Assembly (NCBI RefSeq): GCF_009756665.1
Contig: NZ_CP037953.1
Coordinates: 868,001-932,000, forward strand
From: Permianibacter aggregans
GTDB lineage: Bacteria; Pseudomonadota; Gammaproteobacteria; Enterobacterales; Permianibacteraceae
DNA: 64,000 nt
Direction of reading: 5' to 3'
A model generated the notes under the pieces. The model searched no databases. It saw nothing but the letters and a program-made list of their open reading frames with translations, and was not told the origin of the DNA. The stretch's first letter is position 1. Each line of letters opens with the position of its first letter. Shown here one piece after another: positions 13,689 to 29,604 of this stretch. The translations under genes and the position numbers were made by a program.

Positions 13689-13810
13689 ATTTGAATGTCA
13701 TTTTGTCGGCGTAGGCAAGCATTTTTGTTCTTGGAAAATTCCAGGGTTTTGTGCGAATGAATTTGATGGTATGGACTCCTCCCATCCACGGCATCGAAGT
13801 GCCAGACTGA

Positions 13811-13825
13811 GATTGACGAGTCATG
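13811..13825 (+). other. Copy-specific hairpin loop in the IS110 5' region (copy 1)
   Basis: The loop GATTGACGAGTCATG is closed by the stem GACTGA (13805-13810) / TCAGTC (13826-13831). Stem and flanks are identical in copy 2, where the loop is AGTTGAAGTAACGTT: equal length but 8 of 15 bases differ. It lies 27 bases before the transposase ATG. Confidence 0.6.
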
Positions 13826-13851
13826 TCAGTCACAGAAGGAAGGAGTCCGTT

Positions 13852-14871
13852 ATGAATATTAAGCGCATCGGAATCGACCTGGCAAAGCAGGTTTTCCAAC
13901 TTCATGCGGTCAATGACCACGACAAACCAGTGATGAACAAACGCCTCAGCCGTCAACAGATGCTGCCGTTCTTCGCCAAGCTGGCCCCGACGCTGATTGG
14001 CATGGAAGCCTGTGCGGGTGCGCATTACTGGGCACGCCGGCTGACGAGCCTGGGCCATGTGGTCAAGCTGATGCCGCCGCAGTTCGTCAAACCCTATGTC
14101 AAATCCAATAAGAACGATGCCAATGACGCCGAAGCGATTTGTGAAGCGCTGTCACGACCGACGATGCGCTTTGTCACGGTCAAGCCACCGGAGCAACTGG
14201 CACTGCAAGCCTTACATCGGGTGCGTCAACGAGTAACCCGTGCCCGCACCGCGCTCATCAATGAAACCAAAGGGTTATTGGCTGAGCACGGCATTGTCAT
14301 CTCGACGCATGGCGCCACGGCATTGTGTCGTCAGTTGCCGGCGATTATCGACGAACCGCGCAATGAGCTGTGTCCGTTGATGCGGCAACTGTTGCGTCAG
14401 CTTTATGACGAGCTGACGTTCATGAGTGCACAACTCGATGCCCTGACCAAGCAGGTGCTGGCTTGCGTGAAAAACGATGAACGCATTCAGCGACTGCTGG
14501 CCATCGAAGGCATTGGCCCCATCAATGCTTCGGCATTAGTTGCGCAAGTGGGTGATGCCAAACAATTTCGCAGCGGGCGACAATTTGCCGCGTATTTGGG
14601 CTTGGTGCCAACGCAACATTCGAGCGGAGGCAAAGAGCGTCTGGGACGTATCAGCAAGCGCGGAAATCCATTACTGCGAACCTTGCTGATTCACGGCGCC
14701 CGAGCGGCGGTAAATGCCAGCCGAAAAAAACACGATGCACGCAGCCTGAACATCCAGGCATTGGAGGCAAGACGCGATACCAATGTCACCACCGTCGCCG
14801 TGGCCAACAAAAACGCGCGCATCATCTGGGCGTTGTTGAGCAAAGGCCAGTGTTATCGGAAGAGCAATTAA
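13852..14871 (+). CDS. IS110-family transposase (DEDD recombinase), copy 1
   Basis: 339 residues, identical to the copy-2 protein. The N-terminal RuvC-like DEDD domain has Asp9 (GIDLAK), Glu52 (GMEACAGAHYW), Asp89 and Asp92 (KNDANDAEAICEAL). The C-terminal Tnp domain contains LLAIEGIGPINASALVAQVGDA and the serine-glycine motif TQHSSGGKERLGRISKRGN that supplies the nucleophile serine in this class. The start at 13852 is preceded by AAGGAG at 13839-13844; that site is embedded in a partial repeat of the terminal sequence (GGAGTCC). Enzymes of this family use a guide RNA from the element's own non-coding DNA. Confidence 0.96.
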   Translation: MNIKRIGIDLAKQVFQLHAVNDHDKPVMNKRLSRQQMLPFFAKLAPTLIGMEACAGAHYWARRLTSLGHVVKLMPPQFVKPYVKSNKNDANDAEAICEALSRPTMRFVTVKPPEQLALQALHRVRQRVTRARTALINETKGLLAEHGIVISTHGATALCRQLPAIIDEPRNELCPLMRQLLRQLYDELTFMSAQLDALTKQVLACVKNDERIQRLLAIEGIGPINASALVAQVGDAKQFRSGRQFAAYLGLVPTQHSSGGKERLGRISKRGNPLLRTLLIHGARAAVNASRKKHDARSLNIQALEARRDTNVTTVAVANKNARIIWALLSKGQCYRKSN

Positions 14872-20596: not shown

Positions 20597-21589
20597 TTAA
20601 GAAAAAAAAGCCTTCTTCGCCGCATCCGGCACTTTCAGTCCAGACTTCTCAGCCCGCTTCAACAGCGTCCAGTAATAGCGATAGGTCGCGCGGTCATGCA
20701 GCTCGCCTTTGTGCTGGATGGGGCCCCAGTTGTTGGCTTGCGCGGCCAGCAGAATCTCGGCACCGTCTTCGATTTCGGAAAAATCTGGCTGCATCGCTTC
20801 GACAATCGCTTGAATCTGTGTTGGATAAATACTCCACTGACGCAGGAAACCAAATTCGTAGCGTGCACGTTTGGCATCACCTTTGGTTTGCTCGGCATTT
20901 TTCAGATCGAGCGTGACGTTGTGCGCTGGCACCACACCGTTCGCCAATGCTGCCGCGACCATTTCGGTTTTCGCGCGCACCAACAGTGGGTGCTCGAATT
21001 GGCCCGGTGAGCGCATGCAGCTGGCCGGAATGGCGCCGTGATGACCGGAGACGAAATCCATCATGCCAAAGTCGAGTACCTCTACCCACGGCAACGTGGC
21101 AATCTGCCAGACATCATGCAGCGCACCATGAGTTTCAATCAGGATATGCACCGGAATTTCCCGTTTGATATGCAGCTGACGACATTTGTCTTGCAGGTAG
21201 GCCACCATTTCTTCGGCCTGGCGGACGTTGGTGCTTTTCGGAATGGTGATGTAGGCAATGCGCTCGCCGGCCTGGCTCAGCAGGATGTCAATGTCCTTGC
21301 GCCAGAATTCATGGCTATAGTCATGAATGCGCACACCGGCGCGGTTGTATTTATTGGCTTCGGAGTTGATGACGCGGGCCACCATCGCGGCGTGCTCCGC
21401 TTCCTGACCGGCTTGGGCGCCGTCTTCGCAGTCGCAGGTGATGTCGAACACCGGACCGAGTTCGGCTTGCAGCGCCAGGGCTTTGTTGATCAGCTTTTCG
21501 CTACCGGCGAAATGCTCGCAACTGGCCAGTACCGGGAACGGGCGTTCGCCTTCGAACAGGGCAACATCAGGATGGACGGGCTTGCTCAC
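20597..21589 (-). CDS. L-malyl-CoA/beta-methylmalyl-CoA lyase-like protein (HpcH/HpaI family)
   Basis: 330 residues, GTG start at 21589 with AGGAG eight bases upstream. Family motifs: the metal-binding CDCEDGAQAG (near residue 51-60), ITIPKSTN, ILIETHGALHD, and FGMMDFVSGHHGA. The tail YEFGFLRQWSIYPTQIQAIVEAM matches malyl-CoA lyases (Mcl1), which split L-malyl-CoA to glyoxylate and acetyl-CoA and beta-methylmalyl-CoA to glyoxylate and propionyl-CoA. It is divergent from the cluster at 21855-26919, which supports a shared pathway. Assignment to malyl- rather than citramalyl-CoA is from similarity only. Confidence 0.8.
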   Translation of the reverse strand: MSKPVHPDVALFEGERPFPVLASCEHFAGSEKLINKALALQAELGPVFDITCDCEDGAQAGQEAEHAAMVARVINSEANKYNRAGVRIHDYSHEFWRKDIDILLSQAGERIAYITIPKSTNVRQAEEMVAYLQDKCRQLHIKREIPVHILIETHGALHDVWQIATLPWVEVLDFGMMDFVSGHHGAIPASCMRSPGQFEHPLLVRAKTEMVAAALANGVVPAHNVTLDLKNAEQTKGDAKRARYEFGFLRQWSIYPTQIQAIVEAMQPDFSEIEDGAEILLAAQANNWGPIQHKGELHDRATYRYYWTLLKRAEKSGLKVPDAAKKAFFS

Positions 21590-21734
21590 AACGATCTCCT
21601 ATTGACTTATTTTTTCGGTAACTTGTTTTTCGGTAATTGGGGCTTCGGCACCAGCATAGCCCGGCCTTGCCGGCGGGCAATAGGTATTTGGTGCGATGCA
21701 AACGTCGGATATTACTAACACAGGATGACAAAGT

Positions 21735-21765
21735 TTCAAACGGGTATTTCAAATGATCGTTTGAA
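21735..21765. promoter_or_regulatory. Operator-like inverted repeat between divergent lyase genes
   Basis: TTCAAACG (21735-21742) and CGTTTGAA (21758-21765) form a perfect 8-bp inverted repeat with a 15-base spacer. It sits in the 265-base divergent region of the two lyase genes. The half-site resembles those of TetR-type regulators of fatty-acid genes. The regulator gene is not in this window. Confidence 0.5.
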
Positions 21766-21854
21766 TGGTTATATTGCAACGCACTAGTAGGTCCAACCAG
21801 TGGCTGCACACCAGTCCGGATAAGGCTTGCCGCCTGGCGAGGAGGGAAAAAACG

Positions 21855-22985
21855 ATGATGACAGAACACGCGTTCCTGAAGGATATCAACGAGGAACTGG
21901 TGCTCGGAGGCCCCTGGCCCGGCATTCAACTGTACTATCCGCCGGTCAAATACAACCCGGCCCAGGGCATCTACGAAACGATGGAACAGGCCGCCGAGCG
22001 GATGCGCAAATACGCCCGCGCCTGCAAGGCCCACACGCTGCTTTTCGACCTGGAAGACGGCTGCCGGCAGAAGGACATGAGCCGCGAGTTGCTGCGTCAG
22101 GAGCTGCCCTCGTTCGGCGAATTGAAAGACCGCAGCTTCCAGATTGCCCTGCGTATCAACCCGTTCCGCACCCCCGAATACGACAAAGATCTGGCGCTGA
22201 TCAAAGACATGGCGCCGTTCATCGACGTGATCATTCTGGCCAAGGCCGGCGAAGTCTATGGCGCCGCTGAAATTCGGGATTTGTCCGGTTGGCTGGTTAA
22301 CGTCAACCCGAAAATCAGCATCCAGCCTATTGTCGAACACCCGCGCAGTTTGAAAATCGCACCGGAAATGATGGCTTACACCACCGTTAAGCACGTGGTG
22401 TTCGGTATTCACGATTTCTCAAAAGCGATGGCGATTCACCTGACGCCGGAAAACTGGATTAACGAACTGCGCACCTATTTGATGATGCTGCTGTTCGAAG
22501 CCCGTATCGCCGGTAAAGGCGTGATTGGCGGCGTCGAAGTGCTGCTGAACGCTACGGCGATGCCGGAGAACTATATCGAACCGCACGATATTCGCCGCTG
22601 GCTCGATCTGCATGGCGACCGCGAAGCGCAAATCGTTTACCAGCACGCCGTTGAAGAAACGCAAATGGGTCTGACCGGTAAACAAGTCATTCACCCGGCC
22701 CATATCCATCTGTGCAAAGTGGCGTTCACGCCCAGCCCAATGAAAATCCAGCGCGACGTCAATGTGCTGAAAGCCGCCATTGAAGCCGACGCGCTGCTTG
22801 GCGGCGCCATTCGTTTCGACGGCGAAATGCTCGACCCGCCGATGTTCGGTAAAGCCCTGCAAACTTTGCTGCGCGCCAACGCGCTGCAAAGTTTGAGCGC
22901 CGAACACAAGACTTTTGCGCTGGAAGTGTTGAAGAAACTACCGGTGCACGTCATCCGCGAAAACTGGCCGTACGGTCTGGTCTAA
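21855..22985 (+). CDS. HpcH/HpaI aldolase / CoA-ester lyase family protein, long form
   Basis: 376 residues from the ATG at 21855, which follows GGAGGG. Conserved signatures: LLFDLEDGCRQKDMSR (acidic metal-binding loop), ALRINPFRTPEYDKD, VIILAKAGE, QPIVEHPRSL and TGKQVIHPAHI. The active-site Arg and Glu/Asp ligands of the citrate lyase beta-like fold appear intact. It is longer than usual for the family, with an N-terminal extension (LVLGGPWPGIQLYYPPVKYNP) and additional helices near the C-terminus. First gene of a probable operon with the acyl-CoA synthetase 24 bases downstream. Exact substrate unknown. Confidence 0.75.
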   Translation: MMTEHAFLKDINEELVLGGPWPGIQLYYPPVKYNPAQGIYETMEQAAERMRKYARACKAHTLLFDLEDGCRQKDMSRELLRQELPSFGELKDRSFQIALRINPFRTPEYDKDLALIKDMAPFIDVIILAKAGEVYGAAEIRDLSGWLVNVNPKISIQPIVEHPRSLKIAPEMMAYTTVKHVVFGIHDFSKAMAIHLTPENWINELRTYLMMLLFEARIAGKGVIGGVEVLLNATAMPENYIEPHDIRRWLDLHGDREAQIVYQHAVEETQMGLTGKQVIHPAHIHLCKVAFTPSPMKIQRDVNVLKAAIEADALLGGAIRFDGEMLDPPMFGKALQTLLRANALQSLSAEHKTFALEVLKKLPVHVIRENWPYGLV

Positions 22986-23009
22986 AAATAAGAACGGAGG
23001 AGCAAACGT

Positions 23010-24614
23010 ATGTCGGAATGGAAGTGGCAAGTCCCGGAGCAATTCAATATCGGGGTGGCGTGTACCGATGCCCAGGCCAGCGGAAAAAATGCCGATCAGA
23101 TTGCGATGATCGTCGAAGATGCAACGCTGGGCGAGGAACGTATCAGTTACAAACAACTCGCTGAGCAAAGCAGCCGTTTTGCCGCCGCATTGCAAGCGCA
23201 AGGCGTAAAACCCGGCGCACGGGTTTTGGTGCGTTTGCCAAATTCACTGGCTTATCCGATCAGCTTTTTCGGTGCGATGAAAGCCGGCTGCATTGCCGTG
23301 CCCTCCTCGACTTTGCTTTCAGCCAGCGAAATGGCTTATCTCGCCAAAGATTCCGAAGCCGATGTGCTCGTGGCCCATGTCGATATGTGGCCGGAACTGC
23401 AAGAAAAGCTCGACGATGTGCCATCGCTGAAACAAGTCTGGTTATCCGGTTGTGATCGTTTGCCGGCCAATGTGCAAAGCACGCACGTGAAACTGCACGC
23501 GCTGCGCGATTTGCTGCAAACGAATGCGCCAATTGCTAATTCGCATCCAACGCGCGCCGATGACCCAGCCTATCTCGTTTACACCTCCGGCACCACTGGC
23601 TATCCGAAAGGCGTGCTGCACGCGCACCGCGCCTTGATTGGCCGTATTCCGGCCGCGACCAACTGGTTTGATTTCAAGAATCAGGATCGCATTCTGCATT
23701 CGGGTAAATTCAACTGGACTTACGTGCTCGGCACGGCGTTGATGGACCCGTTGTATCAGGGCCACACGGTTATCGCCTACGAAGGCCCGAACGATCCGGG
23801 TTTGTGGACGCGCCTGATTGCCAAACACCGCTGCACGATATTCATCGGCGTGCCGACCATTTACCGTCAGATCCTGCAAAAAACTTCCGCCAGCAAACAC
23901 GATGTGCCGACGCTGCGCCATTGCATGTGTGCCGGCGAGCATTTGTCGGATGACGTGTTGATTGCCTGGCAAGAACGATTTGGCCAACCGATTTTCGAAG
24001 CGATCGGCATGTCGGAATTCTCTTACTATATCTCGCATCCGCCGCAAAAAAAACCGCAGCCGGGCGCTGCCGGTTTGCGTCAGCCTGGCCATGATGTCCA
24101 GCTTGTCGATCCGGAAAGCTTGAAGCCGATATCGAAAGGCGACGAAGGCATGATTGCCATTCCGCTTGATGATCCGGGCTTGTTCCTCGAATACTGGCGC
24201 TTGCCGGAAGAGAATGCCAAGCAGCGCCGCGAAGGCTTGTTCCTGACCGGCGATTTCGCCTGGGAAGATGAGCAAGGCTATATCTGGTTTATGGGTCGTA
24301 AGGATGATGTGATCAAATCCTTCGGCTATCGCGTGTCACCGCATGAGATTGAGCGCGTGATGAAAAGCCACCCGGCCGTTGCCGACTGTGTGACGCTGGG
24401 ACAAGTGCTGGATGCCAGCAAAACCCTGGTCGTTTCCTGCGTCATTCGCCGCCCCGGCGTCGAAACCAGCGAACAGGAGTTACTGGCATTTGCACAAAAA
24501 GAGCTGGCCGGGTACAAAGTACCGAAACGAATTTTCTTTTTCGATGAATTCCCGCGCACCAAGAACGGGAAAGTATTGCGCAAGCAATTGATCGAAATGT
24601 TGCCGCAAGCCTGA
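23010..24614 (+). CDS. Acyl-CoA synthetase (AMP-forming, benzoate/acetate-CoA ligase type)
   Basis: 534 residues. AMP-binding motifs in order: YTSGTTGYPKG (near residue 188-198), the A5-like IGMSEFSYYISH, TGDFAWEDEQGYIWFMGRKDD, and the C-terminal KNGKVLRKQL with the catalytic lysine. Such enzymes activate a carboxylic acid with ATP and CoA. Placed among CoA-ester lyases and a MaoC hydratase, it probably supplies their substrate by activating a C4-C5 or aromatic acid; that is inference. It lies 24 bases after the preceding lyase with an AGGAG site, and 31 bases before the next. Confidence 0.9.
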   Translation: MSEWKWQVPEQFNIGVACTDAQASGKNADQIAMIVEDATLGEERISYKQLAEQSSRFAAALQAQGVKPGARVLVRLPNSLAYPISFFGAMKAGCIAVPSSTLLSASEMAYLAKDSEADVLVAHVDMWPELQEKLDDVPSLKQVWLSGCDRLPANVQSTHVKLHALRDLLQTNAPIANSHPTRADDPAYLVYTSGTTGYPKGVLHAHRALIGRIPAATNWFDFKNQDRILHSGKFNWTYVLGTALMDPLYQGHTVIAYEGPNDPGLWTRLIAKHRCTIFIGVPTIYRQILQKTSASKHDVPTLRHCMCAGEHLSDDVLIAWQERFGQPIFEAIGMSEFSYYISHPPQKKPQPGAAGLRQPGHDVQLVDPESLKPISKGDEGMIAIPLDDPGLFLEYWRLPEENAKQRREGLFLTGDFAWEDEQGYIWFMGRKDDVIKSFGYRVSPHEIERVMKSHPAVADCVTLGQVLDASKTLVVSCVIRRPGVETSEQELLAFAQKELAGYKVPKRIFFFDEFPRTKNGKVLRKQLIEMLPQA

Positions 24615-24645
24615 ACGATAAGACCGCATTACGGAGCCCCCAACG

Positions 24646-25551
24646 ATGAACGCCATTCCTTACCGCCCCCGCCGCACGATGTTGTACGTTCCGGCCCATG
24701 TAGAACGGCATATCGAAAAAGCCCGTGCCTTGCATTGCGACAGCATTATTTTTGACATGCAGGAATCGGTGCCATCGAGTTTGAAAGAACGCGCGCGTTC
24801 AACCCTTAAAGAAGCCTTCAACAACAAAGATTTCGGCCGCTCGGAAACCGTTGTCCGGATCAATCCGCTGAACTCGCCGTGGGGCCATGGCGATCTGGAA
24901 TTGGCCGCCAGCCTGCCGATCAACGCCATTTTGCTGCCACGGGTGGAAAGCAAACAGCAGATCATCGACACCGTTAAAGCACTCGATGAAGTCGGCGGCG
25001 AGAAAATTCAGTTGATGGCCAATATCGAAAGCCCATTCGGCGTACTACGTGCCGAGGAAATTGCCGGCGCCTCCGATCGCGTGTGCTGCCTCGTTATGGG
25101 CACCACCGATTTGGCCAATGAAATGAAGCTGTCGCTGACACCGGAACGCACCGGTTTGCTGACCAGCTTGAGCCTGACCATTCTCGCCGCACGCGCCCAT
25201 CGCAAAGGCGTTGTCGATGGTCCGCATTTCGATTTGAAAGACGTGAAAAACTGCGAGTTTGCTTGCCGACAAGCGCGTGATCTAGGCTTCGATGGTAAAG
25301 CTGTGATTCATCCGGTGCAGCTCGCCTACACCAATGATGCGTTCACGCCGAAGCGCGGCGATGTGGATCGCGCTTTGCGTATCATCGAAGCATTGAAGGA
25401 AGCCGAATCGAAAGGCATGAGCACAGCAATTATCGATGACCATTTGATTGAGCAAGCGATGATTGAATGGGCGCGTCGAGTCATTGCCGTTTACGAGGCG
25501 GTCAATGATTTGGGCCAGACGGAGTTGTTGGGGCAGGTTAAGCGGCGATAA
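24646..25551 (+). CDS. CoA-ester lyase (HpcH/HpaI family, CitE-like)
   Basis: 301 residues. The start MNAIPYRPRRTMLYVPAHVERHIEKA is the CitE-like opening (Arg/Tyr/Pro loop), followed by IIFDMQESVP, where CitE proteins usually have DLEDSVP. Further motifs are VVRINPLNSPWGHGDLE, LMANIESPFGVL and GFDGKAVIHPVQLAYTNDAF. This is the third lyase paralogue in the cluster and differs from the other two in length and sequence, so a distinct substrate such as citramalyl-CoA or malyl-CoA is likely. It is the last closely spaced gene of the operon. Confidence 0.83.
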   Translation: MNAIPYRPRRTMLYVPAHVERHIEKARALHCDSIIFDMQESVPSSLKERARSTLKEAFNNKDFGRSETVVRINPLNSPWGHGDLELAASLPINAILLPRVESKQQIIDTVKALDEVGGEKIQLMANIESPFGVLRAEEIAGASDRVCCLVMGTTDLANEMKLSLTPERTGLLTSLSLTILAARAHRKGVVDGPHFDLKDVKNCEFACRQARDLGFDGKAVIHPVQLAYTNDAFTPKRGDVDRALRIIEALKEAESKGMSTAIIDDHLIEQAMIEWARRVIAVYEAVNDLGQTELLGQVKRR

Positions 25552-25597
25552 ATGTATACAGCGCTCTCGCTTAGTTTCAAAGCGCTGGCTTTTGATT

Positions 25598-25755
25598 CCC
25601 TCCCCCCTGGTGGGGGAGGGTTAGTGAGAGGGGGAGCCTCGAAAATCGAAAGCCCTAGCAGTTTTAGTCTGTGTCGTAAATTTCTGTAAAAAATTCTGCT
25701 CAGAAATCAACTTTGCAGCGTAATTTCGCCCCCTCTCCCACCAGGGGCGAGGGGC
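25598..25755. repeat. Pair of CCCTC-rich extragenic hairpins in a 333-base gap
   Basis: CCCTCCCCC-CTGGT-GGGGGAGGG at 25598-25620 and the related GCCCCCTCTCCCACCAGGGG... at about 25728-25755, in an intergenic region of 333 bases. No gene or clear promoter is visible in the gap. Confidence 0.6.
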
Positions 25756-25818
25756 AGAAAACACAGCACTCGGGTAGTAACGAATAAAGTGAGCTTCAGC
25801 GCGGTAAATTTATGATTT

Positions 25819-25845
25819 CTGGATTCCCACCTACGCGGGAAAGAC
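25819..25845. repeat. Half copy of the GTCATTCCCGCG repeat, copy B
   Basis: CTGGATTCCCACCTACGCGGG plus AAAGAC corresponds to one arm of the 70-bp repeat at 19122. The other arm is missing. Confidence 0.65.
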
Positions 25846-25884
25846 AAAGCAATTGATAAGCGGCTCGCTTAGCCACGGAGACGA

Positions 25885-26919
25885 ATGATGACGGTCGGAC
25901 GTTTTTTTGAAGATTTCAACATCGGCGAAAAAATCACGCATGCGACGCCACGCACGATCACTGAAGGCGACGCCGCCTTTTACATCGCGCTTTATGGCTC
26001 GCGCTTTCCACAATACAGCGCCCACCAGCCAGCGCAATTGCTCGGCCTGGAAAAAATGCCGATCGATCCGATGCTGGTGTTCCATGTTGCGTTCGGCAAA
26101 ACCGTGCCGGATGTGTCACTGAATGCGGTGGCCAATCTCGGTTATGCCGATGTCCGATTTATCACGCCGGTTTACGCGGGAGATACCCTATTCGTCGAAT
26201 CGGAAGTGATCGGTCTGAAAGAAAACAGTTCCGGAAAAACCGGTATCGTTTATGTGCACTCGACGGCGCGCAATCAAAGCAACCGCATTGCCGTGTCGTG
26301 GAAACGCTGGGTCATGGTGCACAAACGAGATATCAGCAGGGCTACCGGCCACAACACAGTACCGGAGTTACCTTCACAACTTGAAGCCAGCGAGCTACCC
26401 GTACCCTCGCATTTCAAAGCATCGCGCGACTGGCACCGCTACAGCGGCTCGAAAAAGTATGCTGCCGATTACAAGGTCGGCGAAATCATCAGCCACGGCG
26501 GCGGCATCACCATTGGTGACAGCGATCATATGCTTGCCACCCGTCTCTACCAGAACAACGCCCGCGTGCATTTTGATGGCGCCCATATGGCCGGCAAGCG
26601 CCTCGTTTATGGCGGCCATATCATGTCGCTGTGTCAAGCAATGAGTTTCAACGGCTTGGAAAACGCGTTATGGATTGCCGGCTTCAACGGCGGTACCCAT
26701 GCCAACCCCAGCTACGCCAACGACACCATTTACAGCGCCAGCGTCGTGCTTGATAACCAGCATCTGCCGGGTAATATCAATGCCCTGCGCATCGTGACGT
26801 TTGGTAGCAAAAAGGAATTGGCTGGCTGTGACTTGGATGATTTGGCCGATTTGAGCCTAGCGCAAAAGCTGCCGGAACATATTGTGCTGCGTTGGGATTA
26901 TTGGGTGTTGATGGCATAA
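25885..26919 (+). CDS. MaoC family dehydratase, mesaconyl-CoA hydratase-like
   Basis: 344 residues in two hot-dog halves. The first begins RFFEDFNIGEKITHATPRTITEGDAAFYIALYGS, the second contains GSKKYAADYKVGEIISHGGGITIGDSDHML. Length and two-domain layout match mesaconyl-CoA (beta-methylmalyl-CoA) hydratases, which interconvert mesaconyl-CoA and beta-methylmalyl-CoA, a step just before the lyase encoded at 20597. ACGGAG lies five bases before the ATG at 25885. A gap of 333 bases separates it from the lyase operon, so it may have its own promoter. Substrate assignment is by resemblance and context. Confidence 0.78.
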   Translation: MMTVGRFFEDFNIGEKITHATPRTITEGDAAFYIALYGSRFPQYSAHQPAQLLGLEKMPIDPMLVFHVAFGKTVPDVSLNAVANLGYADVRFITPVYAGDTLFVESEVIGLKENSSGKTGIVYVHSTARNQSNRIAVSWKRWVMVHKRDISRATGHNTVPELPSQLEASELPVPSHFKASRDWHRYSGSKKYAADYKVGEIISHGGGITIGDSDHMLATRLYQNNARVHFDGAHMAGKRLVYGGHIMSLCQAMSFNGLENALWIAGFNGGTHANPSYANDTIYSASVVLDNQHLPGNINALRIVTFGSKKELAGCDLDDLADLSLAQKLPEHIVLRWDYWVLMA

Positions 26920-27008: not shown

Positions 27009-27839
27009 GTGCGTTTTCGTTTGACGATTCCCGAAAATCCCCACCCGAGCTTATTGGTTGCGACCTATTCGCTTACGCTGTTACTGGTTGTAGCCCTGAC
27101 AGATACGTTAACGGGTTTTGAATATACATTTTCATTGTTTTATCTGTTGCCAATCATCCTTTCTGCATTACTCGGTCGACCAATTCTGGCTTATGGCACA
27201 GCGATTATCGCCGCAGGGGCCTGGACCGCCTCAGAATTGCTCAGCGGCAAAATCTATGCACACCACCTGGTGTTGCTATGGAATGTGTTGGTGCGCGAAG
27301 GTTTTTTGCTGGCCTTTACTTTTTTGCTGGTTTGGCTCGTTAAATCCCTGAGAATGCTAAGGGTATTATCCAATTTTGACTCGCTGACCAACTTGCCTAA
27401 TCGCCGTTACTTTATTGAGCAAGCAGATGCCATGCTGGCACTCATCAATCGACAACATGGGGTTGGCTGCCTTGCCTATATTGATCTGGATAACTTTAAG
27501 CAAATCAATGACTCACTGGGGCATCAGGCTGGTGATGAAGTACTGAAACTGGCTGCCATAGCGATTCGATGCAGTATCCGCCCCTACGATATCGCGGGTA
27601 GATTGGGTGGTGACGAGTTCGCCATTTTTATGGCTCATGTCGATCCATCGGTGAGTGATGCCGCGTTGGGAAAGGTACGACAAGTCTTTGAGCGACAAAT
27701 GTGTGCGATGCAACTACCGGTTCAGATGAGTATTGGTATTGACTACATCGACAACCCGGACCGAAAGCTGGCCGAATTGTTGGCGGCTGCTGATGCCAGA
27801 ATGTATGCGACCAAGCGAGCCCATAAAGACCCCCCTTAG
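27009..27839 (+). CDS. Membrane-bound diguanylate cyclase (GGDEF domain)
   Basis: 276 residues with a GTG start at 27009; CGGAG ends eight bases upstream. Residues 15-115 have four or five hydrophobic spans (LLVATYSLTLLLVVALTDTL, LLAFTFLLVWLVKSL). The GGDEF domain begins at DSLTNLPNRRYF (near residue 124), and the active-site loop is an intact GRLGGDEFAIF. Diguanylate cyclases of this type make cyclic-di-GMP from two GTP. There is no RxxD inhibitory site in the usual position that I can see. The EAL gene follows 58 bases downstream. Confidence 0.9.
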   Translation: MRFRLTIPENPHPSLLVATYSLTLLLVVALTDTLTGFEYTFSLFYLLPIILSALLGRPILAYGTAIIAAGAWTASELLSGKIYAHHLVLLWNVLVREGFLLAFTFLLVWLVKSLRMLRVLSNFDSLTNLPNRRYFIEQADAMLALINRQHGVGCLAYIDLDNFKQINDSLGHQAGDEVLKLAAIAIRCSIRPYDIAGRLGGDEFAIFMAHVDPSVSDAALGKVRQVFERQMCAMQLPVQMSIGIDYIDNPDRKLAELLAAADARMYATKRAHKDPP

Positions 27840-27897
27840 CCATTACATTTACACAAATACATTATTTTTTATTATGCCGCATCCAAAACCCTAGCGC

Positions 27898-29604
27898 TTG
27901 TCTACACTGGTTCAATCGCTCCCGGCGGGAGTAGACCAAGGGTTCAATGTGTATCTTCCGGAACACGTCGTCACGGCAACCCCTCATGACTGGGTGTTGG
28001 ATGGCACGACAACACCTGCGGTTGTCGTATCGAACAATCTTAGCTGTTGGCGTGGTAACCATAGCTTTACACGACTCATCAACACGCTGGAATTCTGTCG
28101 GCACTTTTTTGCAATCGAAAAAAATCAACCGCGACTACGGAAAAAAGTTGCCGATGATCTGCAACACAAACTGACCGCAAAACGAAAGCTGTTGATCCGT
28201 GAGGTCTCTGGCGTCCGCCGATTCTATCAAGTGGTTGTAACGACTCCTCAGGATAATGACGTCCATGCTTGGTTCCTGTTCTTTTTGCACCCACTCCCAT
28301 TCGACCATTACCTTGCCTCGTTTCCCGCCACCTTCAGGAAAGGTGAATCCAGTACGCCCAGAACGGAATTTTCCATTCAGCTGGGCAAGCGACTGAAGGT
28401 CGCCAAACAGACCGAACTATGCCTCGTTGTTTTTGTCCTGGATATCGTTGGCTTTCGTTCAGTCAATGAGAGTGAGGGTTACCATATTGGCGACAAAGTG
28501 CTCTCGATTCTGCAACATCGCTTGGGGTTTATTGCCAAACACAACGGCATTATCGCCCATATCGCCGACGACGATTATGCTGTCGGTGTTTTGGTCGAGG
28601 ACAATCCAGAAGCGATTCATACGCTGATCAGTCGCATGGACAGCGCCGTCAGAAAGCCCTACTTCATCAACGAAAGCAAACAGCGGCTGTTCCTGCGATT
28701 GGCGGTAGGCACATCCATTTCCACGCCGCAAACCGACTCCGCATGGAGATTGGTTGAGCAAGCAAGAACGGCTTGCGTATTGGCAAAGCGTCAGGCCAGC
28801 AACGAAGTCATTGTCTACGATCAATTACACCAACATCACAGCAGCGAACAATTTCGGCTGGAGCAAAAAGTGTTTCAGGCGGTGGCATCGCAAGCCTTTC
28901 ATGTTGTCGTGCAACCGCAATTCACCATGGACGGCCAGCAACTGGTCGGCGCGGAAATGCTATTGCGTTGGACAGAAGCAGATGGCACCACGCATTCGCC
29001 GATGGAATTCATCCCTATTGTAGAGAAAATGGGTTTAATGCCAAAGCTGTCGGAATGGGTTCTGCACCAAGCCATCGCGATACAAAAGCAGTTGCTGCGA
29101 AACGGGACAACACCCGTGCCACTGTCGATCAACTTGTCGCCCACACAAATCGAACTCACGACGCATGTACAGCATTTGCTTGCCATCATTCACGCCAGCG
29201 AGTTGCCGGGAAAATTCCTTGAAATCGAGATAACGGAAGACAGTCTGCTCCACCATCACAGCGAAACCTTGAGCAATCTGAACCGAATAAATCAGACGGG
29301 CATCGCTATCGCTTTGGATGACTTCGGTATCGGCTATTCGTCATTAAGTTATCTGAGTCAATTTCCGATTCAAAAGCTGAAAATTGATCGAAGCTTTATT
29401 ACTCACATCACAGATGACCACAAGCAACGCCAGTTGGTCACCTTGATGTTGAACATTGCCAATACGTTTAGTATGAAACCGTTGGCAGAAGGCGTTGAAC
29501 TCGCTGAGCAGATTGAATGCCTGCAAGCGCTGGGCTGCCAGTATGTGCAGGGCTATCTCTACGCCAAACCGGAAAGCGTCGGTGATTATCTGGCCCGATA
29601 CTAA
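27898..29604 (+). CDS. Degenerate-GGDEF/EAL protein, probable c-di-GMP phosphodiesterase
   Basis: 568 residues if the TTG at 27898 is the start; a GTG at 27949 with AAGGG upstream is an alternative, and no in-frame ATG occurs early. The central GGDEF-like domain has lost its signature (IADDDYAVGVL), so it is not expected to make c-di-GMP. The EAL domain carries GAEMLLRW (EML in place of EAL), LSINLSPTQIE, LEIEITEDSLL, LDDFGIGYSSLSYL, KLKIDRSFI, LAEGVE and QGYLYAKP: all metal and catalytic residues that I can check are present. The first 150 residues have no recognisable domain. It is probably coexpressed with the cyclase upstream. Confidence 0.86.
   Translation: MSTLVQSLPAGVDQGFNVYLPEHVVTATPHDWVLDGTTTPAVVVSNNLSCWRGNHSFTRLINTLEFCRHFFAIEKNQPRLRKKVADDLQHKLTAKRKLLIREVSGVRRFYQVVVTTPQDNDVHAWFLFFLHPLPFDHYLASFPATFRKGESSTPRTEFSIQLGKRLKVAKQTELCLVVFVLDIVGFRSVNESEGYHIGDKVLSILQHRLGFIAKHNGIIAHIADDDYAVGVLVEDNPEAIHTLISRMDSAVRKPYFINESKQRLFLRLAVGTSISTPQTDSAWRLVEQARTACVLAKRQASNEVIVYDQLHQHHSSEQFRLEQKVFQAVASQAFHVVVQPQFTMDGQQLVGAEMLLRWTEADGTTHSPMEFIPIVEKMGLMPKLSEWVLHQAIAIQKQLLRNGTTPVPLSINLSPTQIELTTHVQHLLAIIHASELPGKFLEIEITEDSLLHHHSETLSNLNRINQTGIAIALDDFGIGYSSLSYLSQFPIQKLKIDRSFITHITDDHKQRQLVTLMLNIANTFSMKPLAEGVELAEQIECLQALGCQYVQGYLYAKPESVGDYLARY

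What the first reader, a model, noticed from the sequence alone, without database searches (positions are those of the whole stretch)
20597..26919. Malyl-CoA/mesaconyl-CoA cluster with three distinct CoA-ester lyases
Seen: three different HpcH/HpaI lyases, one AMP-forming CoA ligase and a two-domain MaoC protein of the mesaconyl-CoA hydratase length, in 6.3 kb. Known: Mcl and Mch act together in the ethylmalonyl-CoA, 3-hydroxypropionate and methylaspartate routes; citramalyl-CoA lyase acts in itaconate degradation. No ethylmalonyl-CoA mutase or crotonyl-CoA carboxylase is visible. Inference: a compact route for C4-C5 dicarboxylic acids (mesaconate, citramalate, itaconate or beta-methylmalate) to glyoxylate/pyruvate plus acyl-CoA, with the long 376-residue lyase as a possible new activity.
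Basis: partly seen in the sequence, partly recalled or inferred. Interest (0 to 1): 0.6.

Follow-up and report, generated by a model that had tools for sequence, protein, structure and literature searches.

The report
Mesaconyl-CoA branch feeding methylcitrate cycle
Five neighbouring genes encode enzymes that probably split a five-carbon acid into propionyl-CoA and glyoxylate for the methylcitrate cycle, and they occur in bacteria that lack the usual glyoxylate shunt, so they may be a replacement for it.

Summary
The five genes are real and correctly placed. MCH is a close relative of a solved beta-methylmalyl-CoA dehydratase. The three lyases belong to the CitE/malyl-CoA lyase superfamily. 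The 301-aa one groups with Mcl2-like (thioesterase-type) proteins and has their Glu in place of the catalytic Asp in 69 of 70 relatives. The 376-aa one is a separate uncharacterised clade, beside the AMP-forming ligase in 80 of 80 loci kept. In Methylotenera the same five genes sit inside the methylcitrate-cycle cluster, in print as 'cyl1, maoC, cyl2, cyl3, prpE' (PMC4109929), with the cycle's role unknown (PMC3728764). The window's own genome has a separate fumarase-prpBCD operon. True isocitrate lyase is absent from 39 of 39 distinct cluster-bearing genomes tested, malate synthase from 35 of 39. Best reading: mesaconyl-CoA is cut to propionyl-CoA plus glyoxylate, feeding the methylcitrate cycle; with citramalate as source this would be a B12-free acetyl-CoA assimilation cycle. 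The source of mesaconate and all substrates are inferred.

The parts
20597..21589 (-). L330: 330-aa CitE-superfamily C-C lyase; proposed beta-methylmalyl-CoA/malyl-CoA lyase
   Evidence: PF03328; nearest solved chains 3qqw and 3r4i, deposited as putative citrate lyases, E 4e-150 and 2e-114. Catalytic residues kept wherever aligned. Directly upstream of prpB in 8 of 29 distinct prpB loci. Also in 5 class-sample genomes without the 376-aa lyase.
21590..21854 (.). divergent intergenic region between L330 and the L376 operon; probable promoters
   Evidence: gene arrangement; promoters not tested
21855..22985 (+). L376: 376-aa lyase of a separate clade; candidate (S)-citramalyl-CoA or beta-methylmalyl-CoA lyase
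   Evidence: PF03328 over cut-off; 66-80% identity to 23 aligned relatives; six catalytic positions invariant in 79 of 79; own clade 100/100; no near solved structure
23010..24614 (+). LIG: 534-aa AMP-forming acyl-CoA ligase; proposed mesaconate (or citramalate) CoA ligase; called prpE in the Methylophilaceae literature
   Evidence: PF00501 + PF13193; below the cut-off of each of the 25 NCBIfam models shown of 105 matched; beside L376 in 80 of 80 loci
24646..25551 (+). L301: Mcl2-like CitE-superfamily protein; proposed (3S)-malyl-CoA thioesterase
   Evidence: Glu at the position of MCLR Asp299 in 69 of 70 relatives, Glu44 lost in 69 of 70; clade 99/94 with Mcl2-like proteins of Ruegeria and Tritonibacter and a Deinococcus plasmid protein; 42% identity to the Ruegeria protein; model pLDDT 88, fold nearest to malyl-CoA lyase and CLYBL, Z 33.5
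25581..25770 (.). inverted repeat (40-nt arms, 78% complementary, 110 nt between) in the 333-nt gap between L301 and MCH
   Evidence: a 17-nt core with up to 3 mismatches occurs only in these two arms in the window
25885..26919 (+). MCH: two-domain MaoC, mesaconyl-C1-CoA hydratase (beta-methylmalyl-CoA dehydratase)
   Evidence: PF19315 over cut-off; 4e3e (deposited as MaoC domain protein dehydratase) E 2e-101 and 8hgn (beta-methylmalyl-CoA dehydratase) E 2e-93 over nearly the whole length

Best explanation
The five genes form a mesaconyl-CoA/beta-methylmalyl-CoA branch that makes propionyl-CoA for the methylcitrate cycle and glyoxylate for malate synthesis, in bacteria without the glyoxylate shunt. 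Proposed steps: LIG activates mesaconate to mesaconyl-C1-CoA with ATP; MCH hydrates it to beta-methylmalyl-CoA; L330 (or L376) cleaves that to propionyl-CoA and glyoxylate. PrpC, PrpD/AcnB and PrpB turn propionyl-CoA plus oxaloacetate into pyruvate plus succinate, and Sdh, fumarase and malate dehydrogenase restore oxaloacetate. Glyoxylate plus acetyl-CoA is condensed to malyl-CoA by a lyase and hydrolysed to malate by L301, standing in for malate synthase. Mesaconate would come from citramalate by the class I fumarase (mesaconase activity), with citramalate from pyruvate plus acetyl-CoA through L376 or CimA. Net: 2 acetyl-CoA to malate, as in the glyoxylate shunt. Well supported by family: MCH, the superfamily of all three lyases, and the gene link to the methylcitrate cycle. 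Inferred: every substrate, the flux direction, the assignment of L330 against L376, the thioesterase activity of L301, and the source of mesaconate.
For: MCH identity. In M. mobilis 13 one region holds L301-MCH-L330-prpB-prpC-prpD divergent from GntR-malic enzyme-sdh genes-L376-LIG-class I fumarase-acnB (prpB, prpD, malic enzyme, fumarase, acnB by profile; prpC by 68% identity; GntR and sdh by eye and from the gene list in PMC4109929). L330 directly precedes prpB in 8 of 29 distinct prpB loci and class I fumarase in 14 of 29. The own genome has fumarase-prpB-prpC-prpD elsewhere, 67-74% identical to the M. mobilis proteins. Isocitrate lyase 0 of 39 distinct cluster-bearing genomes against 81 of 227 other class-sample genomes and 84 of 135 others in the order sample. 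Malate synthase only 4 of 39. Crotonyl-CoA carboxylase 0 of 39 and methylaspartate ammonia-lyase 0 of 39, so neither known route to mesaconyl-CoA was found. L301 has the Glu that PMC3832036 reports only for the thioesterase group and groups with Mcl2-like proteins, one of which lies three genes from mch in Ruegeria, matching RSP_0970/RSP_0973 and Pden_0563/0566 (table in PMC6747724). The cluster is expressed in situ, in general above the RuMP genes, in Methylotenera (PMC3728764). The chemistry of a citramalate cycle is a published proposal (PMC8307300).
Against: No substrate of any of the five proteins is known. The source of mesaconate is unproven: CimA is over its cut-off in only 18 of 39 genomes and, from general knowledge, makes (R)-citramalate whereas mesaconase handles (S). 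L301 has lost Glu44, said to be absolutely conserved, in 69 of 70 relatives, and two each have lost one of the two metal ligands, so it may be inactive or do something else. The lack of isocitrate lyase is confounded by descent: the 13 cluster genomes of the order sample lie in three families, the five in the class sample give p = 0.17, and 146 of 227 cluster-less class genomes lack it too. RuMP methylotrophs and Calvin-cycle bacteria have little obvious need for acetyl-CoA assimilation. LIG is named prpE in print (PMC4109929). L330 also occurs without L376 in 5 class-sample genomes, 4 of them with isocitrate lyase.
Confidence: 0.48

Rival explanations
1. A catabolic route for outside C5 diacids (mesaconate, citramalate, itaconate, beta-methylmalate): LIG activates the acid, MCH and the lyases cleave it to propionyl-CoA, glyoxylate, pyruvate or acetyl-CoA, and the methylcitrate cycle finishes the job.
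For: Same enzymes as above; ATP-driven activation suits uptake of a free acid; class I fumarase could feed citramalate; by eye, a sodium-symporter-like frame near the cluster in 4 of 80 loci.
Against: Conserved in C1-growing and lithotrophic lineages (their lifestyle is general knowledge); embedded with sdh, acnB and malic enzyme in Methylotenera; no transporter among the five neighbours scanned in the window.
Confidence: 0.2
2. A propionate module as annotated in the Methylophilaceae papers: LIG is a propionate-CoA ligase (PrpE role), and the lyases and MaoC are accessory or side-reaction enzymes of the methylcitrate cycle.
For: Published gene list names it prpE beside prpCBD (PMC4109929); no prpE lies beside the own prp operon (by eye).
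Against: No PrpE model is among the 25 NCBIfam models shown for LIG and it passes none of those 25. LIG stays with L376, not with prpBCD, in the window's genome. It leaves a full-length mesaconyl-CoA hydratase relative and two lyases with intact catalytic residues unexplained.
Confidence: 0.15
3. The branch runs the other way: glyoxylate plus propionyl-CoA are joined to beta-methylmalyl-CoA, dehydrated to mesaconyl-CoA, and taken through mesaconate and citramalate to pyruvate plus acetyl-CoA, like the second half of the 3-hydroxypropionate bi-cycle but without its CoA-shifting enzymes.
For: Lyase and hydratase steps of these families are reversible (general knowledge); L376, LIG and fumarase sit together in M. 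mobilis; L376's weak C-terminal sequence match and low-confidence fold match are to citramalyl-CoA and malyl-CoA lyases.
Against: ATP-using LIG would be on the wrong side for the mesaconyl-CoA end; linkage to prpBCD suggests propionyl-CoA is consumed by the methylcitrate cycle.
Confidence: 0.1
4. LIG plus L376 split citrate or 2-methylcitrate: LIG makes the CoA ester and L376, a CitE relative, cleaves it, a two-enzyme ATP-dependent citrate lyase.
For: L376's best NCBIfam match is CitE, far below cut-off (56 of 443 bits); neighbours in M. mobilis include acnB and prpC.
Against: A CitE match below cut-off is shared by L301 and by the Ruegeria Mcl2-like protein; does not explain MCH.
Confidence: 0.05

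Closest known systems
Final part of the ethylmalonyl-CoA pathway (Mch, Mcl1, Mcl2 of Rhodobacter sphaeroides)
   Same: Mesaconyl-CoA hydratase relative, CitE-superfamily lyases and an Mcl2-clade protein beside mch
   Different: No crotonyl-CoA carboxylase in 39 genomes; an AMP-forming ligase and two lyases of other clades instead of Mcl1; propionyl-CoA would go to prpBCD
Citramalate cycle proposed for Rhodospirillum rubrum (PMC8307300, passages read)
   Same: Pyruvate + acetyl-CoA to mesaconyl-CoA to glyoxylate + propionyl-CoA is the chemistry proposed here
   Different: Closed there by propionyl-CoA carboxylase and methylmalonyl-CoA mutase; here by the methylcitrate cycle, with an ATP-using ligase in place of the mesaconate CoA-transferase
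Methylcitric acid cycle cluster of Methylotenera (PMC4109929, PMC3728764)
   Same: The same five genes are in that published cluster as cyl1, maoC, cyl2, cyl3, prpE (matched by order and kind)
   Different: In the window's genome the five genes stand apart from prpBCD; the published role is 'unknown' and no mesaconyl-CoA branch was proposed in the passages read
Methylaspartate cycle of Haloarchaea
   Same: mesaconyl-CoA hydratase and malyl-CoA lyase as isocitrate-lyase bypass
   Different: No methylaspartate ammonia-lyase match in 39 genomes
Itaconate degradation (RipABC / Ict-Ich-Ccl)
   Same: MaoC plus CitE-type lyase
   Different: RipB and RipC models far below cut-off; no CoA-transferase among the genes scanned at the locus

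Membership tests
Mesaconyl-CoA hydratase (Mch) | full-length two-domain MaoC close to characterised Mch | tested here: met
   8hgn (beta-methylmalyl-CoA dehydratase) E 2e-93, 4e3e E 2e-101 over 4-343
Mesaconyl-CoA hydratase (Mch) | hydration of mesaconyl-C1-CoA | not testable with these tools
   needs enzyme assay
CitE-like superfamily C-C lyase (L330, L376) | conserved Arg, Glu and Asp metal ligands, Glu-Asp pair and catalytic Asp (PMC3832036, passages) | tested here: met
   79 of 79 L376; L330 kept wherever aligned, 44-49 of 49 by position with the rest gaps
[quoted passage not shown]
   L330 and L376 form their own clades (100/100); Rhodobacter and Methylobacterium Mcl pair with each other (88/93)
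(3S)-malyl-CoA thioesterase (Mcl2) | Glu in place of catalytic Asp | tested here: met
   69 of 70 L301, one Gln
(3S)-malyl-CoA thioesterase (Mcl2) | groups with Mcl2 proteins | tested here: inconclusive
   clade 99/94 with Ruegeria and Tritonibacter proteins, of which the Ruegeria one is Mcl2 by gene order only; the Rhodobacter Mcl2 sequence itself was not in hand
(3S)-malyl-CoA thioesterase (Mcl2) | Glu44-Asp45 pair | tested here: not met
   Glu44 kept in 1 of 70, though kept in the Mcl2-like proteins
Propionate-CoA ligase PrpE | passes the PrpE model | tested here: inconclusive
   not among the 25 NCBIfam models shown of 105 matched; none of those 25 passed
Ethylmalonyl-CoA pathway | crotonyl-CoA carboxylase/reductase | tested here: not met
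   0 of 39 distinct genomes at E <= 1e-30, own included
Methylaspartate cycle | methylaspartate ammonia-lyase | tested here: not met
   0 of 39; controls rang in 3 of 14, none over cut-off
Glyoxylate shunt | isocitrate lyase and malate synthase | tested here: not met
   isocitrate lyase 0 of 39; malate synthase 4 of 39, absent in own genome
Methylcitrate cycle in the window's genome | prpB, prpC, prpD | tested here: met
   all over curated cut-offs, in a row with class I fumarase
Citramalate cycle | enzyme making citramalate or citramalyl-CoA from pyruvate + acetyl-CoA | tested here: inconclusive
   CimA over cut-off in 18 of 39 including own genome; L376 activity unknown
RipC/Ccl itaconate lyase | passes NF038242 | tested here: not met
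   46, 48 and 137 bits (L330, L376, L301) against 375

The most novel reading that the evidence does not exclude
A complete citramalate-methylcitrate cycle: acetyl-CoA assimilation without isocitrate lyase, malate synthase, carboxylation or B12, used across Kangiella-type heterotrophs, methylotrophs and lithotrophs, with L376 making (S)-citramalyl-CoA, a new AMP-forming mesaconate-CoA ligase, and a class I fumarase acting as mesaconase. It would answer what the methylcitrate cycle of Methylotenera processes.
Probability: 0.27. Interest if true: 0.82.

Novelty: new variant of a known kind. Interest (0 to 1): 0.6.

Why it matters
The role of the methylcitrate cycle in Methylotenera was called unknown in 2013, although its genes were transcribed in situ in general more than those of the main assimilation pathway (PMC3728764, abstract passage, section 14 and other passages). 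A mesaconyl-CoA branch as its source of propionyl-CoA makes that question testable with five enzyme assays and one deletion. If the full cycle runs, it would be an alternative to the glyoxylate shunt needing neither B12 nor a carboxylase, unlike the ethylmalonyl-CoA and methylaspartate routes (general knowledge), in lineages as different as iron oxidisers, methylotrophs and marine heterotrophs. It could also give a function to structure-solved orphans (3qqw, 3r4i).

Tried and rejected
Ethylmalonyl-CoA and methylaspartate routes as sources of mesaconyl-CoA: set aside because their key enzymes were not found (for the ammonia-lyase the control genomes rang in 3 of 14 and none over cut-off, so that test is less sure). 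Itaconate degradation: RipB/RipC models far below cut-off. Structure prediction of the 376-aa lyase was poor (mean pLDDT 64.7), so its Foldseek matches to citramalyl-CoA and malyl-CoA lyases are not relied on. The isocitrate-lyase contrast in the class sample alone is not significant (0 of 5 against 81 of 227, p = 0.17); the order-sample value (0 of 13 against 84 of 135, p = 9e-6) and the comparison of the handle genomes are not corrected for descent. Isocitrate lyase was called by me, by hand from the listings, on E-value (<= 1.8e-18 in the class sample, <= 7.8e-19 in the order sample) with the about 300-aa PrpB-like hits excluded; two Kangiella-family PrpB-like hits (G032, G007) come close to that line, and among the handle genomes G202 (E 3e-13 in a 970-aa frame) was called PrpB-like without reading it. 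Genomes in the same families without a 376-aa lyase hit (G072, G058) also have only PrpB-like hits. MCH also occurs without L376 in the class sample (G286 at 51% identity; G207 and G324 at 33%). Plasmid copies of mch in Marinobacter and Cupriavidus (unannotated, frames by eye) showed no comparable cluster. MAGs labelled Methylopumilus (L066, L087) carry the cluster, whereas PMC6794327 (passage) says the methylcitrate pathway is absent there; labels were not checked. A search for papers on a mesaconate- or citramalate-CoA ligase listed one paper, not opened. Kangiella with isocitrate lyase or methylcitrate: nothing on point in the 10 of 277 listed. I saw no proposal of this branch in the listings or in the passages read, in a library without most subscription journals; the papers that I recall as first describing the Methylotenera cluster and mesaconate use in Burkholderia xenovorans are not held.

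Handle counts: 42 handles were asked, 2 not held, 40 searched; the same 40. G289 and G408 give identical hits and are one genome, so I count 39. The handles are 37 of the 80 named loci, chosen by me for spread of genera, plus the own genome and the four other class-sample carriers. One search read the 30 loci returned (of 41 matches); the same duplicate makes 29.

Full report
What is there. The window lies at 868001-932000 of a 4.27 Mb single-contig genome. Five genes were confirmed at 20597-26919. I call them L330 (- strand), L376, LIG, L301 and MCH (+ strand). L376, LIG and L301 are 24 and 31 nt apart, and MCH follows after 333 nt that hold an inverted repeat. The three lyases are the only PF03328 matches of the genome at E <= 0.001.

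MCH. Over nearly its whole length it matches 4e3e, deposited as a MaoC domain dehydratase, and 8hgn, deposited as beta-methylmalyl-CoA dehydratase, at E 2e-101 and 2e-93. This is the safest assignment of the five.

The lyases. L330 is close to 3qqw and 3r4i, which PMC3832036 lists as CitE-like; it says that functions of several such structures are unknown (passages). L376 has no near solved relative. L301 is nearest to malyl-CoA lyases, and its model (pLDDT 88) aligns best to Rhodobacter malyl-CoA lyase and human CLYBL, tied at Z 33.5 with 282 residues at 2.0-2.1 A. A tree of 32 rows gives each its own clade. The same paper states that the catalytic Asp of the superfamily is Glu only in the group of the Rhodobacter malyl-CoA thioesterase. 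L301 has that Glu in 69 of 70 relatives; L376 (79 of 79) and L330 (44 of 44 aligned) have Asp. L301 also forms a clade (99/94) with proteins of Ruegeria, Tritonibacter and a Deinococcus plasmid, all with Glu. In Ruegeria this gene lies three places before mch, with sdh genes beyond, the spacing of RSP_0970 and RSP_0973, listed as malyl-CoA thioesterase and mesaconyl-CoA hydratase in a table of PMC6747724. So L301 is Mcl2-like. Against that, it lost Glu44 in 69 of 70, which the Mcl2-like proteins keep.

How widespread. A scan with L376 gave 257 relatives, of which the best 80 loci were kept: Kangiella, Pleionea, Aliikangiella, Thalassotalea, Methylotenera and other Methylophilaceae, Methylophaga, Gallionella, Sideroxydans, Sulfuricella and other records. 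L376 and LIG are adjacent in 80 of 80. Within the flanks held, frames were clustered as MCH and L301 in 70 loci each, L330 in 49, a GntR-like frame in 39, malic enzyme-like in 35, sdhA- and sdhB-like in 31 each, class I fumarase-like in 29 and acnB-like in 16 (family names there by eye, representatives checked except GntR and sdh). In an even class sample of 232 genomes L376 is in 5, MCH in 8 (two of these at only 33% identity) and L330 in 10; all five L376 genomes have the other two.

The methylcitrate link. In Methylotenera mobilis 13 (L143, L144) the genes read L301-MCH-L330-prpB-prpC-prpD, divergent from GntR-malic enzyme-sdh genes-L376-LIG-class I fumarase-103 aa-acnB. In the window's genome a second locus (within 104-122 kb) carries class I fumarase-prpB-prpC-prpD, 67-74% identical to the M. 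mobilis proteins. Among 29 distinct prpB loci of cluster-bearing genomes, prpC is beside prpB in 25, class I fumarase in 14 and L330 in 8; three of the four without prpC hold a 35-39% PrpB-like paralogue and the fourth is a short stretch.

What is in print. PMC4109929 (table line and one passage read) lists 'prpCBD, cyl1, maoC, cyl2, gntR, mdh, sdhABCD, cyl3, prpE, fum, can' as methylcitric acid cycle genes of Methylophilaceae. PMC3728764 (abstract passage, section 14 and other passages) says the role of this cycle there is unknown and that the genes are highly expressed in situ. So the gene set is known; its function is not. I saw no proposal of a mesaconyl-CoA branch in these passages or in the listings.

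The glyoxylate shunt. True isocitrate lyase is missing from all 39 distinct cluster-bearing genomes tested, 36 of which have a weak PrpB-like match. It is present in 81 of 227 other class-sample genomes and 84 of 135 others of the order sample (counted). Malate synthase is present in 4 of 39 and absent from the own genome. Crotonyl-CoA carboxylase and methylaspartate ammonia-lyase were not found in any of the 39. CimA passes its cut-off in 18 of 39, own genome included. Shared descent weakens the first contrast: only about eight lineages are involved (my estimate), and many cluster-less genomes lack isocitrate lyase too.

How it most likely works. LIG makes mesaconyl-CoA, MCH hydrates it, a lyase yields propionyl-CoA and glyoxylate. 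The methylcitrate cycle turns propionyl-CoA plus oxaloacetate into pyruvate and succinate. Glyoxylate plus acetyl-CoA becomes malyl-CoA and then malate through L301. If pyruvate and acetyl-CoA supply citramalate and the class I fumarase makes mesaconate of it, two acetyl-CoA give one malate with no net carboxylation: the citramalate cycle proposed for Rhodospirillum rubrum (PMC8307300, passages), closed by the methylcitrate cycle. Family assignments and gene links are shown; substrates, direction and the mesaconate source are inferred.

Verdict. The cluster is a new variant of known chemistry in an already noticed gene set, with an open physiological question made testable.

Noticed in passing
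L301 family, e.g. window 24646-25551: 69 of 70 relatives lost the superfamily's 'absolutely conserved' Glu44 (Gln in 36, Gly in 32, Tyr in 1), and two each lost one of the metal ligands: a remodelled or decaying active site.
   Followed up: partly
window 25581-25770: Inverted repeat with 40-nt arms between L301 and MCH; its 17-nt core occurs nowhere else in the window.
   Followed up: partly
L160 (G159:C16:88521): An L330 relative lies about 8 kb from a true isocitrate lyase in a genome without L376, so L330 has a life outside this cluster.
   Followed up: no
L145 7815-8705 (own genome near 1.84 Mb): A second PrpB-like protein under the methylisocitrate lyase cut-off (254 of 354 bits), with no prpC-like frame seen beside it.
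   Followed up: no
L066, L087: MAGs labelled Methylopumilus carry the cluster although PMC6794327 reports the methylcitrate pathway absent from that group.
   Followed up: no
L051 13005-14462; L019 12931-13833: Frames that look by eye like a sodium symporter (4 of 80 loci) and an EamA-type transporter (8 of 80 loci) lie downstream of MCH.
   Followed up: no
window 27009-29604: A GGDEF protein followed by a GGDEF-EAL protein directly downstream.
   Followed up: no
window 13771-14871: A 366-aa frame that looks like an IS110-type transposase (by eye, not searched).
   Followed up: no
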